From Actinorugispora endophytica (GTDB taxonomy: Bacteria; Actinomycetota; Actinomycetes; Streptosporangiales; Streptosporangiaceae), in NCBI RefSeq assembly GCF_004363075.1, contig NZ_SNYN01000024.1, forward strand, positions 1-64,000: 64,000 bases of DNA, given 5' to 3'. Shown one piece after another: positions 26,549-53,083 of this stretch. The position numbers were made by a program, and so were the translations under genes. Numbering within the stretch: position 1 is the first letter of the stretch; each line of letters opens with the position of its first letter. The notes under the pieces were generated by a model. It worked only from the letters and a program-made list of their open reading frames with translations, searched no databases and was not told the DNA's origin.

Positions 26549-28126
26549 TCAGGCCTGGCGCTCCCACGGCCAGCGGGCGGCGCGGCCCGCCTCGATGAGC
26601 GGGATCATGCCGAAGGCCGCGTCGGTCAACCCGGCGAAGGTGTACCGGCCGCCCTCGCCGGACGGGCCGTGGCCGTACCGGTACCCGGCGAGATTCCAGG
26701 TGTAGACGGGAACCTGCGCGGGGACCTCCCCCGTGGGGTCCTCCCCCCGCCGCCCCGCCCACGCCTGCTCGTCGGTGACGATGACGACCCGGTCGTGTCC
26801 CCTGTAGTTGTCCCTGACGGCGGCCGCCGTGTTGGTCCCGCCCAGGTTCCCGAAGCGCTCGACCACCCGCAGGAGCGCGTCGCCCCTGCGGATCCCGACC
26901 GGCGCGTGCGTGGTGCCGAACTGGACCAGGTCGGCGTCCTCCGCCCGGAGCGCCAGCGCGGCGCCGAACACCGCCGCGCTGTCGGCCGCGGTCAGCGTGG
27001 ACCGGTCGGAGCCGCCGAAGAACATCGACCCGGACCGGTCCACCAGGACGAGGGTGCGGCCGGGCAGCGCGGGCACGTTGGCCAGCGACGCCTGGAGCGC
27101 CCGCTCCAGCGCGGCTCCCCAGCGCAGCGACGGGGCGGCCCGGTGGGCGGCCAGGTAGCGCATCGGAAGCTGCCGGGAGCGCGCCACCTCCTCGGGGTCG
27201 GCGATCCGGGCGGCCACCGCTCGGGCGGTCTCGTCGTCCAGCCCCGCCTCGTCAAAGTTGCGCAGGTTGCGCAACCGGGCCATGGACCCCATGGAGGCCA
27301 GCACCGCCTTCCAGGCGGCCGCGTCCATCGGCCCCTGGAGCCATCCGGCCAGCGCCTCCCAGGTCATCCCGGCACGGCGCAGCACCTCGTCCGCGTCGGG
27401 CCGGTCCAGGACCGCGCGGCGCTCGGGCACCTCCAGCGCCATCAGCCCGGCGCGGGCCCGCAGCGTGTCCAGCCCGTCGGGGACCGGGTCGCCCCTGCCG
27501 TGGCGGCGGTCCAGCGCGTGCCGGAACAGCAGTCCCTGGCGGGTGTCCCTGGCGACCGGGTGCACGATGTCGATGACGTCTCCGAAACGGTAGGCCCGGG
27601 CGTCGGTGTCGTACTTGAGCAGCGCGCGCTCGGTGTAGAGGCGGGCCACGGCGTCGGCGACTCCGCGCTTGAGCGGCTTGGGGACGGCCCGCCCGTACCG
27701 GCCCGTCCAGTAGGCCAGCGCCTCTCCGGGCTCGTCGGGACGCAGCAGGACCGAGTCGACCAGCCGGCGGCTCCGCCCGTGCGCGCCCGCGGCGAGCCTG
27801 GCCCGTACGGCCTCGACCGCCCCGACCAGGGCGGCCGAGCGCAGTCCGACGTCTCCGCGCAGCCAGCGGAGCAGGCCGCCCAGCCAGTCGACGTCCTCCA
27901 CGGCGAGCCGGGCCACCAGCTCGCGGTAGCGCTGGTCGCGCTCCTCGGCTCCTTCGTAGGCGGTTCGCTCCCCCACCATGTTCGAGACCGCGAGCACGAA
28001 GAGTTCGGACCGGGCGTCGCGCCGGTGGCCGGGCGCGCCTTCGAAGGTCCGACCGGACGCGACGCGTTCGGCGGTGACGGGTGCGGTACCGGTCGTGGTG
28101 GCCGTGGCCCGGTTGAACTTGGCCAT
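26549..28126 (-). CDS. rsr: TROVE-domain RNA-binding protein, bacterial Ro60 orthologue (Rsr)
   Basis: 525 aa from ATG 28126 with GAGGAGG upstream. The N-terminal two thirds form the HEAT-repeat TROVE ring (SELFVLAVSNMVGE, WLGGLLRWLRGDVGLRSAA, RYLAAHRAAPSLRWGAALE). The C-terminal third is a von Willebrand A domain with an intact metal site D363-R-S-G-S and VVIVTDEQAW. Ro proteins bind misfolded RNAs in the ring cavity and Y RNAs on the outer surface, and act in RNA quality control under stress. Y RNA sequences lie immediately upstream on the same strand. No rtcB RNA ligase gene, a frequent partner, is nearby. Confidence 0.93.
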   Translation of the reverse strand: MAKFNRATATTTGTAPVTAERVASGRTFEGAPGHRRDARSELFVLAVSNMVGERTAYEGAEERDQRYRELVARLAVEDVDWLGGLLRWLRGDVGLRSAALVGAVEAVRARLAAGAHGRSRRLVDSVLLRPDEPGEALAYWTGRYGRAVPKPLKRGVADAVARLYTERALLKYDTDARAYRFGDVIDIVHPVARDTRQGLLFRHALDRRHGRGDPVPDGLDTLRARAGLMALEVPERRAVLDRPDADEVLRRAGMTWEALAGWLQGPMDAAAWKAVLASMGSMARLRNLRNFDEAGLDDETARAVAARIADPEEVARSRQLPMRYLAAHRAAPSLRWGAALERALQASLANVPALPGRTLVLVDRSGSMFFGGSDRSTLTAADSAAVFGAALALRAEDADLVQFGTTHAPVGIRRGDALLRVVERFGNLGGTNTAAAVRDNYRGHDRVVIVTDEQAWAGRRGEDPTGEVPAQVPVYTWNLAGYRYGHGPSGEGGRYTFAGLTDAAFGMIPLIEAGRAARWPWERQA

Positions 28127-28209
28127 AGCGCGCCTCCTCATACGGTGCTCGTCGGGAACAGGCACCGGCGGGGTCCGCTGAGCGGACGGCCGGTGTCGGG
28201 GGCGGGGTC

Positions 28210-28299
28210 GACAGCGGCCGCCGAGCCGCATCAGGGGAGGTCCGGCGGGACTCGGACCCGCGTCGTTCTCTTGGGGGGAGGCATCCGCTGTCCGCGCAC
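28210..28299 (-). ncRNA. Probable third Y RNA, diverged
   Basis: On the minus strand, GTGCGCG is followed by GACAGCGG-ATGCCTCC, and the strand closes with CCGCTGTC, giving a perfect 8-bp stem in the same position as in the two clear Y RNAs. A T-arm-like hairpin GCGGG-TCCGAGT-CCCGC (5 bp, 7-nt loop) lies inside, then an imperfect 7-bp stem CCGGACC/GGCTCGG. The D-arm is missing, and 16 of 23 bases match the conserved strand of the other copies. It ends 84 bases upstream of rsr. Confidence 0.6.
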
Positions 28300-28390: not shown

Positions 28391-28535
28391 GGGGCGCCCG
28401 AGATCTGAGTCGGCGACGGTGCTTGCCCGATGCTCTACCGACTGAGCTACACCGGTCCTGGGACCGGCGGCGGGACTCGAACCCGCGACCGTCGGGTCCG
28501 GAAGAAGTATCCGTCGCCTGCGCACCGGGCGCCCC
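28391..28535 (-). ncRNA. YrlA-type Y RNA with complete tRNA-like module
   Basis: Read 5' to 3' on the minus strand: a 10-bp outer stem (GGGGCGCCCG/CGGGCGCCCC), an internal loop, an 8-bp stem GGCGACGG/CCGTCGCC, the conserved ATACTTCT loop, then a circularly permuted tRNA. The permuted order is 5-bp anticodon-like stem CCCGA/TCGGG, T-arm GCGGG-TTCGAGT-CCCGC (28470-28486), 8-bp acceptor-like stem closed by a CCAG loop (28450-28469), T8-A9 equivalents, and D-arm GCTC-AGTCGGTA-GAGC (28432-28447). YrlA-family Y RNAs are known to carry such a tRNA-like module and to lie beside rsr. Not a tRNA: the arm order is permuted and the acceptor end is sealed. Confidence 0.88.
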
Positions 28536-28544
28536 GGTTGTGCG

Positions 28545-28658
28545 AGGCTTTCCGAGTTCCCGGCGCCGATGGAGTCCTACGCCGCGATGAAACGGCGCTT
28601 TGGGTTCGAACCAAAATGGATTACCAGAAGTATCCATCGGCTTCGCACCGGAAAGCCT
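28545..28658 (-). ncRNA. Second Y RNA, tRNA-like module lacking the D-arm
   Basis: Minus strand: outer 10-bp stem AGGCTTTCCG/CGGAAAGCCT, internal loop beginning GTGCGAA, 8-bp stem GCCGATGG/CCATCGGC, loop ATACTTCTGG, a perfect T-arm TTTGG-TTCGAAC-CCAAA, and a stem CGCCG/CGGCG with an 8-nt loop in the acceptor position. Twenty of 23 bases of the conserved 5' strand equal those of the copy at 28391, and the stem differences are compensated on the other strand. Nine bases separate the two RNAs; the sugar kinase gene ends 46 bases upstream. Confidence 0.82.
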
Positions 28659-28703: not shown

Positions 28704-30077
28704 TCAGCGGTGCTGGTCCCGGACCGCGAACAGGAAGTGCTCGGACACCTCCGAGCGCACCGTGCGCAGGCGCGCCTGGACGGCTCTGCGCAGCCTGCCG
28801 AAGCACTCCAGGACGGCCGCGTTGTCGCCGACCATCCCGCCCTTGGTCACGAGCGGCGCGCCGTCCAGCGGACCGCCGACGATGACGCCGTGCACCGCGA
28901 GCGGCAGCACCTCGCCGCCGACCTCGAAGGCGTGCACGCCCAGCTCGTCCAGCACCGCCGAGGTGACGTTGCCGCCGGTCACGAACAGGCCGCTGGGCCC
29001 GCCTGCGGGCCCCGCCTCGCGCTGGGCGTTCTCCACGGCGCGCACGACCAGTCCGGCGAGCACCTGCGGCAGGACGCGGCGACGTCCGACGGGCAGCGCG
29101 GCGATCCCGGCCGCGGACACGCCCAGCCGCAGGATCACCACGTCGGGGAAGACGTGGCTGGTGAGGGAGTCGGTCAGGACCCGGACGAGTTCGTCCCGCC
29201 GTTCGAAACCCCGGTCCTCCAGCGCCTCGGCGTCGACGTCGACGAAACAGGCCGGACCGGTGCGCGCGACCGCGTCCAGCTGGCGGCGGGTCAGGTCGGA
29301 GGCGCTGCCGACGACGGCCAGCAGCGGCCCGGCGACGTGGCCCCGGCCGCGCAGGCGCAGCGCCTCGGCCAGCAGCGCGCCGGCCGGTCCGGGGTCCGCG
29401 GCCAGCCACACGATGCCGTGCTCGCGGTGGGCCTGGGCCGCGGCCTGGGCCAGTTCGGTCAGGTACGGCTCGGTGAGGGCGTCGCACAGCACGACCGGCT
29501 CGTCGCCCGAGGCGAGTTCGGCGGCAAGCAGGTCTCTGGTGATCTGGCGGACCGGGACGTGCCGCACCGCGAGGCCGCTCTGGCGCGCGAACACCTCGGC
29601 GACGTCCCCGGTGGTGGCGGGGCTGAGCGGGTCGAGCGCCAGCTCGGTACGGTCCAGCGGCACCCCGTCCAGGAGCTGGACGCCGCCGGCGGTGGTGCGG
29701 CCCGAGGAGGGGAACGCCGGGACCAGCAGCACGCGCGGGCGCGTCCGCGGCGGACAGCGGTCCCGCAGCGCCCGCCAGGCGGCCTCCACCTCGGCGCCGA
29801 TGTTGCCTCGCAGGGTGGTGTCGATCCGCTTGACCACCAGCCCGACCGGCCAGACCGCCTCGACCACGTCGGTGACGAGGTCGACGGCCTGTTCGGCGGG
29901 CATGTGGCGGCTGTCCAGGTTGGCCACGACGACGTCGTAGTCCTCGGCCGCGCGGGTGACGTGTTCGGGGGCGACGGTCACGACGCGGTGACCCGAGCGC
30001 GCGAAACGGGCGCCGGTCGCGTTCGCTCCGGTGAGATCGTCTGCGATGACGAGAACCTGTGCCACCCGACTATTCAT
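28704..30077 (-). CDS. Four-carbon acid sugar kinase family protein (DUF1537)
   Basis: 457 aa. N-terminal domain begins VLVIADDLTGANATGARFA, with KRIDTTLRGNIGAEVEA near residue 85. The C-terminal nucleotide domain has GLFVTGGNVTSAVLDELGV, PLAVHGVIVGGPLDGAPLVTKGGMVGD. Family members phosphorylate four-carbon sugar acids such as D-threonate or D-erythronate with ATP. ATG 30077 is the best start, though its ribosome site is weak. It follows the Gfo/Idh/MocA gene by 92 bases on the same strand, and both may act in sugar-acid use; no PdxA2-type or aldolase partner is present. Confidence 0.88.
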   Translation of the reverse strand: MNSRVAQVLVIADDLTGANATGARFARSGHRVVTVAPEHVTRAAEDYDVVVANLDSRHMPAEQAVDLVTDVVEAVWPVGLVVKRIDTTLRGNIGAEVEAAWRALRDRCPPRTRPRVLLVPAFPSSGRTTAGGVQLLDGVPLDRTELALDPLSPATTGDVAEVFARQSGLAVRHVPVRQITRDLLAAELASGDEPVVLCDALTEPYLTELAQAAAQAHREHGIVWLAADPGPAGALLAEALRLRGRGHVAGPLLAVVGSASDLTRRQLDAVARTGPACFVDVDAEALEDRGFERRDELVRVLTDSLTSHVFPDVVILRLGVSAAGIAALPVGRRRVLPQVLAGLVVRAVENAQREAGPAGGPSGLFVTGGNVTSAVLDELGVHAFEVGGEVLPLAVHGVIVGGPLDGAPLVTKGGMVGDNAAVLECFGRLRRAVQARLRTVRSEVSEHFLFAVRDQHR

Positions 30078-30169
30078 AGTGCACTCGGGGGAGCGGTTCG
30101 CCGCGTCCGGGTCGGCGGGGCCGTCCCCGATGGAACCGCTCCCCCGAACCGCGCTCCCGAAGACCCTGG

Positions 30170-31249
30170 TCAGCCCGCCCGGACCCCCACCGCCTCGCCG
30201 GTGCGGGCGCTGCGCAGGGCCGCCTCGATGACGTCGAGCCCGTGCACGACCTCGTGCGGTTCGACGGGCAGCGGCTCGCCCTCCCCGACGGCGTCGCGCA
30301 CGCCCGCGTAGAAGGCGGGGTAGTCGCCCCGTTCGGAGGGGACGGCCTTGGTCTCGCCGTCCGTCCCCAGCCTCCCCCAGGCGGCCTCGGGTTCGACACC
30401 CCAGCCGGGGCCGCCGGGGCGCTCGCCCTCTCCCAGGCGCGCCTCCTGCCCGTCGAGCCCGTGCACGGTGAACGCCGCGCCGTCGCCCAGGACCCGGAAG
30501 CGGGGGCCGAGCTGGGCGGCCACGGCGCTCATCCACAGGTGCGAGCGGGTCCCGTTCTCGTGGGCGAGGGCGACGAAGGTGTCGTCGTCGGCGCCGACGC
30601 CCGCGCGCCGCGCGTCCAGTTCGGCGTAGACGGAGCGGACGGGGCCGAAGAGGTTGACCGCCTGGTCGATGAGGTGCGCGCCCAGGTCGTAGAGGAGCCC
30701 GGCCCCCTGCTCGACGGTCCCGCTCTCGCGCCAGGTGCCCTTGGCCTGGGGGCGCCAGCGCTCGAAACGGGACTCGAACCGGTGCACCCGGCCGAGCGCA
30801 CCGTCCTCGATCAGCTTCCACAGGGTGAGGAAGTCGCTGTCCCAGCGCCGGTTCTGGAACACGGTGAGCACCTGGCCGAGCCGCTCGGCCCGGGCCTGGA
30901 GCGCGCGGGCCTCGGCCGCGGTGACGGCGAAGGGCTTGTCCACGACGACCGCGAGTCCGGCGTCGAGCCCGGCTTCGGCCAGCGGCGCGTGCGTGTCGTT
31001 GGGCGAGGCGATGACGGCGATCTCGAACTCCCCCGCCCGCCGCCACAGCTCCCCTGCCGAGGCGATCACCTCGGTGCGCGGGTACCGCGCCCGTACGGCG
31101 GCGGCGCGCTCGGCGTTCCCGGTGACCACCGCCGAGAGCCGGAGTCCGGGTGTGGCGTCGATGAGCGGGGCGTGGAACACCTCGCCGCCCTTGCCGTATC
31201 CGATGAGCGCGACGTGCAGTTCCGGTCCGGTGCCGTGATCAGTGGTCAT
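30170..31249 (-). CDS. Gfo/Idh/MocA-family oxidoreductase
   Basis: 359 aa. N-terminal Rossmann domain with LIGYGKGGEVFHAPLI, VIASPNDTHAPLAEAGLDAG, and the catalytic lysine motif VVVDKPFAV near residue 103. The C-terminal alpha/beta domain contains NRRWDSDFLTL, GAGLLYDLGAHLIDQAVNLFG with the family's D/H pair, and RGDYPAFYAGVRDAV. Closest in style to the YdgJ/YhhX group of NAD(P)-dependent sugar or inositol dehydrogenases. Ribosome site GAGG lies 5 bases before the ATG. Substrate unknown. Confidence 0.92.
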   Translation of the reverse strand: MTTDHGTGPELHVALIGYGKGGEVFHAPLIDATPGLRLSAVVTGNAERAAAVRARYPRTEVIASAGELWRRAGEFEIAVIASPNDTHAPLAEAGLDAGLAVVVDKPFAVTAAEARALQARAERLGQVLTVFQNRRWDSDFLTLWKLIEDGALGRVHRFESRFERWRPQAKGTWRESGTVEQGAGLLYDLGAHLIDQAVNLFGPVRSVYAELDARRAGVGADDDTFVALAHENGTRSHLWMSAVAAQLGPRFRVLGDGAAFTVHGLDGQEARLGEGERPGGPGWGVEPEAAWGRLGTDGETKAVPSERGDYPAFYAGVRDAVGEGEPLPVEPHEVVHGLDVIEAALRSARTGEAVGVRAG

Positions 31250-52825: not shown

Positions 52826-52840
52826 GGGGACACTCGACGA

Positions 52841-53034
52841 CCCCGTGCGGGAGAGCGTCCGCAGCAGCCAGCGCGGACCGCCGAAGGAGCAACCCCTCCC
52901 CAGAGAACCTCTCAGGCGCTACGGACCGCACGGGCAAGAGCACTCTGGAAAGCAGGAGCCTGTGACAGGCGCCTCGCCGAAGGTGCAAGCCGCCCGCGCG
53001 GCGAAGCTCTCAGGCAAAGATGACAGAGGGGGAG
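52841..53034 (+). ncRNA. Tandem glycine riboswitch
   Basis: Two glycine aptamers in series. The first runs from GTGCGGGAGAGCGTC through CGCCGAAGGAGCAA to AGAGAACCTCTCAGGC. The second runs from AGAGCACTCTGGAAAGC through CGCCGAAGGTGCAAGC to GAAGCTCTCAGGCAAAGATGACAG. These are the conserved elements of the gcvT motif. After it, GAGGATGG (53032-53039) can pair with CCATCCTC (53062-53069) just before the gcvT ribosome site, a possible expression platform. Glycine binding should turn on the cleavage operon. Confidence 0.95.
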
Positions 53035-53083
53035 GATGGCAATTGGTAGCTTCGTTCGCGTCCATCCTCTTCCAGGAGTGCCC

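What the first reader, a model, noticed from the sequence alone, without database searches (positions are those of the whole stretch)
28391..28535. Y RNA containing a sealed, circularly permuted tRNA
On the minus strand the order is T-arm, acceptor 3' strand, CCAG loop, acceptor 5' strand, T8-A9, D-arm. The T-loop (TTCGAGT) and D-loop (AGTCGGTA) are canonical, and the acceptor stem is 8 bp. An anticodon-like 5-bp stem opens into an 8-bp and then a 10-bp stem. YrlA Y RNAs are known to mimic tRNA, but this copy keeps every tertiary-contact base I can check, so it may be bound or modified by tRNA enzymes.
Basis: partly seen in the sequence, partly recalled or inferred. Interest (0 to 1): 0.85.

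Follow-up and report, generated by a model that had tools for sequence, protein, structure and literature searches.

The report
Y RNA built around permuted tRNA
The window holds a bacterial Y RNA of the known YrlA kind, whose working end is a tRNA cut open at the anticodon loop and sealed at the acceptor end, beside its Ro60 partner gene; relatives in other actinomycetes go further and carry a whole tRNA including the anticodon arm, which I did not find described.

Summary
Window 28391-28535 (-) is a Y RNA with a sealed, circularly permuted tRNA body, 264 nt upstream of a Ro60 (TROVE) gene on the same strand. It is a divergent YrlA (Rfam 44.8 bits, E 1e-8, below the 69-bit cut-off). Permutation, tRNA mimicry and modification by tRNA enzymes are published for YrlA, so this copy is ordinary in kind. 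It is one of three tandem units; unit 1 lacks the D arm and unit 3 looks degenerate. No Dus enzyme was found in this genome, so dihydrouridine is not expected; TruB is present. The new part lies in relatives: beside the window's form (Y stem in place of the anticodon loop) there is a second form in which the tRNA is opened between positions 28 and 29 and keeps a full anticodon arm (Y32 U33 NNN R37 A38, 4-5 nt before the T stem), with two Ro60 lineages. Its triplet is hypervariable and does not follow the tRNA body, so decoding is unlikely; a tRNA mimic, perhaps a decoy, fits better. I found no description of this form in the literature I could search.

The parts
28391..28535 (-). Unit 2: the whole Y RNA of the finding, 145 nt
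   Evidence: Rfam RF02553 44.8 bits E 1e-8; model R2 110.6 bits, trained partly on it
28526..28535 (-). outer stem, 5' strand (pairs with 28391-28400)
   Evidence: 10 Watson-Crick pairs; outer stem covaries in 62 units
28391..28400 (-). outer stem, 3' strand
28504..28518 (-). Y stem 5' strand GGCGACGG and conserved ATACTTC motif; presumed Ro60-binding region (inferred)
   Evidence: GG-W-TACTTC invariant in A1 and A2; note the units were picked by this motif
28412..28419 (-). Y stem 3' strand CCGTCGCC
   Evidence: covariation
28492..28496 (-). tRNA positions 39-43 (anticodon-stem 3' strand)
   Evidence: covaries with 27-31
28487..28491 (-). variable loop CGGTC (44-48)
   Evidence: 15:48 covaries G-C/A-T in relatives
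28470..28486 (-). T arm
   Evidence: sequence
28450..28469 (-). acceptor stem, 8 bp, sealed by CCAG
   Evidence: sequence; stem covaries
28432..28447 (-). D arm
   Evidence: sequence
28426..28430 (-). tRNA positions 27-31 (anticodon-stem 5' strand)
28546..28657 (-). Unit 1: second Y RNA-like unit with outer stem, Y stem, T arm and acceptor hairpin, no D arm
   Evidence: model R2 33.6 bits, E 1.6e-5 in the window; coordinates
28206..28296 (-). Unit 3: degenerate Y RNA-like unit with Y stem, T arm, remnant anticodon-like hairpin CTC-CCCCCAA-GAG, no D arm
   Evidence: model R1 31.9 bits, E 1e-7 in 801 nt; R2 E 5e-5 in the window
26549..28126 (-). Ro60 (TROVE) protein gene, 525 aa
   Evidence: Pfam TROVE 43.8 bits, E 2.5e-11, above cut-off; Ro60 vWA 20.5 bits, below cut-off

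Best explanation
Unit 2 is a YrlA-class Y RNA. The Ro60 protein encoded just downstream holds the stems (inferred). The other end folds like a tRNA elbow: T arm, sealed acceptor and D arm, with the Y stem taking the place of the anticodon loop. As in the published Rsr-Y RNA-PNPase work, this tRNA-shaped end most likely docks a tRNA- or RNA-binding protein, chiefly PNPase, so that Ro60 and the exonuclease act together on structured RNA; the tRNA core is probably also seen by TruB. Shown here: structure, covariation, gene context, presence of TruB and PNPase genes. Inferred: transcription, Ro60 binding, PNPase docking, modification. The neighbouring units and the relatives' arrays show that the tRNA-like end is modular: the window form, T-arm-only, anticodon-hairpin-only, and complete-tRNA forms.
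For: Rfam YrlA match; Ro60 gene downstream on the same strand and the only TROVE gene found in the genome; Y RNA units just upstream of Ro60 in most of the relatives read; covariation of the helices and of 15:48 (G-C 17, A-T 6 of 24); model for the window's form 110.6 bits versus 85.9 for the anticodon-arm form; TruB and PNPase present; RYPER and modification described for bacterial Y RNAs in PMC8394870.
Against: No expression data. The Rfam score is below the family's cut-off. No sigma-70-like promoter found, which says little in an actinomycete. The PNPase link is carried over from Deinococcus. The lowest-energy fold differs from the tRNA form at the anticodon-like stem.
Confidence: 0.88

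Rival explanations
1. The tRNA-shaped units are decoys: they occupy tRNA-attacking enzymes such as anticodon nucleases, and Ro60 keeps or recycles them. Arrays vary in module and, in relatives, in anticodon triplet because the attackers vary.
For: PMC7790460 (discussion) suggests YrlA may competitively inhibit an anticodon nuclease; anticodon-arm units keep U33/R37/A38 while 34-36 vary; several different units per array.
Against: No test here; the window copy has no anticodon loop; triplet variation could be plain drift.
Confidence: 0.2
2. The units are permuted tRNA genes that are spliced and opened to give working tRNAs.
For: All tRNA parts are present in the relatives' anticodon-arm form; RtcB is in the genome.
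Against: Acceptor ends are mostly sealed by loops of 3-6 nt; triplets include AGG, not a normal bacterial anticodon, and do not follow the tRNA body; the window copy has no anticodon loop at all; RtcB lies elsewhere in the genome.
Confidence: 0.02
3. Chance tRNA-like sequence, or the junction of two tandem tRNA genes.
For: Tandem identical tRNA genes do give the same order of arms and partial model matches.
Against: ARAGORN finds no tRNA in the window; Y and outer stems flank the body and covary; Ro60 is adjacent.
Confidence: 0.01

Closest known systems
YrlA Y RNA (Rfam RF02553; Salmonella YrlA, PDB 6CU1)
   Same: Order of arms, sealed acceptor, Y stem in place of the anticodon loop, Ro60 gene adjacent
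   Different: Below the Rfam cut-off, a covarying outer 10-bp stem, its own Y-stem motif (GGWTACTTC), three units in tandem, no rtcBA genes at the locus
Deinococcus radiodurans Y RNA in RYPER (Rsr-Y RNA-PNPase)
   Same: Y RNA beside a Ro60 gene, PNPase present in the genome
   Different: The link to PNPase is not tested here
Circularly permuted tRNA genes (algae, archaea; from general knowledge)
   Same: Reversed order of tRNA halves
   Different: Ends sealed by short loops, Y stem attached, no sign of maturation to tRNA

Membership tests
YrlA (RF02553) | Covariance-model match at the gathering score (69 bits) | tested here: not met
   44.8 bits, E 1e-8, full length 1-114: a clear relative, but below the curated cut-off
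YrlA (RF02553) | Permuted T arm, acceptor, D arm with sealed acceptor and Y stem at the anticodon position | tested here: met
   Sequence and covariation
YrlA (RF02553) | Encoded next to a Ro60/Rsr gene | tested here: met
   TROVE gene 26549-28126
YrlA (RF02553) | Bound by Ro60 and PNPase | not testable with these tools
   PNPase gene present; binding needs an experiment
YrlA (RF02553) | Substrate of tRNA-modifying enzymes (DusA, TruB) | tested here: inconclusive
   TruB present, no Dus found; modification itself not testable
Permuted tRNA gene | Complete tRNA with an anticodon loop | tested here: not met
   Window copy has the Y stem there; model R1 shows three mismatched pairs at the anticodon hairpin

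The most novel reading that the evidence does not exclude
In related actinomycetes a class of Y RNAs carries a complete circularly permuted tRNA, opened between positions 28 and 29 of the anticodon stem, with a full anticodon arm whose loop keeps Y32, U33, R37 and A38 but whose triplet is free. It occurs beside two Ro60 lineages, sometimes in the same array as the window's form and as anticodon-hairpin-only units. Bacterial Ro60 would thus present whole or partial tRNA mimics in arrays, possibly as decoys. The form may have arisen by reading across tandem tRNA genes.
Probability: 0.6. Interest if true: 0.68.

Novelty: new member of a known kind. Interest (0 to 1): 0.42.

Why it matters
The window RNA extends YrlA-type tRNA mimicry to a divergent actinomycete array and shows, by covariation of the 15:48 tertiary pair, that the tRNA elbow itself is under selection. 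The relatives' anticodon-arm form would matter more: it would make it directly testable whether Y RNAs act as mimics of whole tRNAs, for example as decoys for enzymes that attack or modify the anticodon arm.

Tried and rejected
Folding energy as proof (z -1.38): too weak. Isotype of the body against the anticodon: own isotype is top in 4 of 47, shuffled mean 2.1; mean rank 8.5 against 10.1, P 0.011 without correction for relatedness; too weak to claim a decoding identity. Model R1 hits in genomes that seemed to lack Ro60 were first suspected to be false: five such loci were read in wider context and all five have a second, classical Ro60 gene. Partial R1 hits at positions 19-97 that were checked are tandem tRNA genes, so the tally of 133 of 299 genomes is an upper bound. 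Primary papers on YrlA (Chen 2014, Wang 2018, Sim and Wolin 2018) are not in the library.

Full report
What is there. From 5' to 3': outer stem strand, Y stem strand with ATACTTC, tRNA positions 39-43, a 5-nt variable loop, T arm, 8-bp acceptor stem sealed by CCAG, T8-A9, D arm, A26, positions 27-31, and the closing strands. Rfam matches it to YrlA over the full model at 44.8 bits, E 1e-8, below the family's 69-bit cut-off. ARAGORN sees no tRNA. A TROVE-domain (Ro60) gene starts 264 nt downstream on the same strand and is the only TROVE match found in the genome.

Is the structure real. Energy alone does not prove it. Eighty loci with relatives of the Ro60 gene were fetched, and 106 of 299 genomes of the same family have a relative. 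Most of the loci read carry one to five units with the motif GGWTACTTC in the 1.1 kb upstream of Ro60. On a MAFFT alignment of 21 units of the window's form, not fitted to the structure, 95.6% of cells pair, against 33-56% when partners are slid, and 19 pairs have two-sided changes. The Levitt pair 15:48, which was not used for selection, is G-C in 17 and A-T in 6 of 24. The outer stem covaries from its fourth pair outward; pairs 1-3 were fixed by the anchors used. Caveats: units were chosen by motif; units of this form were required to have at least 4 of the 5 anticodon-stem pairs, so that stem is partly conditioned; shuffles do not remove relatedness.

The array. Two further units lie in the window: unit 1 (28546-28657) with outer stem, Y stem, T arm and acceptor hairpin but no D arm, and unit 3 (28206-28296), a degenerate unit. 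Their match E-values in the whole window are 1.6e-5 and 5e-5.

A second form in relatives. Of 126 distinct units with a T arm, 53 have a 7-nt-loop hairpin (three inner Watson-Crick pairs and at least 4 of 5 pairs required) exactly 4 or 5 nt before the T stem; other spacings give 0 or 1. The loop letters were not used for selection, yet position 32 is C/T in 51, 33 is T in 48, 37 is A/G in 45 and 38 is A in 49 of 53, while 34-36 vary freely. In 46 distinct such units with a D arm, the two bases after position 26 pair with 43 and 42 in 44 and 42 cases, against 32 and 21 when shuffled. So the tRNA is opened between 28 and 29. 15:48 is G-C in 27 and A-T in 18. The alignment count agrees. The inner three pairs were a selection criterion and carry no independent weight for the 46. 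Some units lack a T arm and hold only an anticodon-like hairpin: in 9 of 41 such units the best hairpin has a 7-nt loop.

Two Ro60 lineages. The model of the second form found loci in genomes without a close relative of the window's Ro60. The five of these that were read in wider context have a Ro60 gene of another lineage with TROVE and a strong vWA_Ro60 match. There 13 parsed units have T33 in 13, A/G37 in 13 and A38 in 13; the D-arm pattern in that script misplaced 27-28, so its pair counts are not used, though reading the sequences by eye shows CT against AG and CC against GG in the units looked at.

Which form is the window copy. It is the classical YrlA arrangement.

Function. Published work on YrlA and bacterial Y RNAs: tRNA mimicry, tethering of Rsr to PNPase, and modification by DusA and TruB (PMC8394870); circular permutation against tRNA (PMC11472068); a suggestion that it may compete with an anticodon nuclease (PMC7790460). 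The genome has PNPase, TruB and RtcB away from this locus; no Dus was found. The best reading is a YrlA-type Ro60 partner. In the second form the triplet does not follow the tRNA body clearly, so a structural mimic is favoured over decoding.

Origin. Pairs of identical tRNA-Asn genes 4-5 nt apart in genomes of another family of the class, when read across the junction, give the same order of arms and match the model in part. This suggests how a sealed permuted tRNA could arise; it is not proof.

Novelty. The window RNA is a divergent new member of YrlA. I found no description of the anticodon-arm form in the library searched, but the key papers are not held, so this remains open.

Noticed in passing
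L009:2819-2931, L026:2672-2786, L040:2755-2868 and others in alignment A1: Y RNAs of relatives with a complete permuted tRNA including an anticodon arm, opened between positions 28 and 29.
   Followed up: yes
L179, L180, L181, L183, L184: A second Ro60 lineage (TROVE plus vWA_Ro60) with Y RNA units upstream that have a different stem (GGGTCGAAG...TCGGTTAT) but the same anticodon-arm form.
   Followed up: partly
L195:1455-1607, L196:1473-1624: Tandem identical tRNA-Asn genes 4-5 nt apart; read across the junction they have the order of arms of a sealed permuted tRNA.
   Followed up: partly
L012, L013, L017, L029, L103 upstream of Ro60: Short Y RNA units whose only effector appears to be an anticodon-like stem with a 7-nt loop (CTGCAAA, CTGTCAA, CTTTCCA, CTCTCAA).
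   Followed up: partly
own genome (G000): No dihydrouridine synthase (PF01207) match, while 13 of 14 control genomes match.
   Followed up: no
window 52838-53036: Tandem glycine riboswitch aptamers on the + strand.
   Followed up: no
window 28704-31046 (-): Upstream neighbour of the array: open frame whose C-terminal part matches SBD_N and NBD_C (four-carbon acid sugar kinase-like).
   Followed up: no
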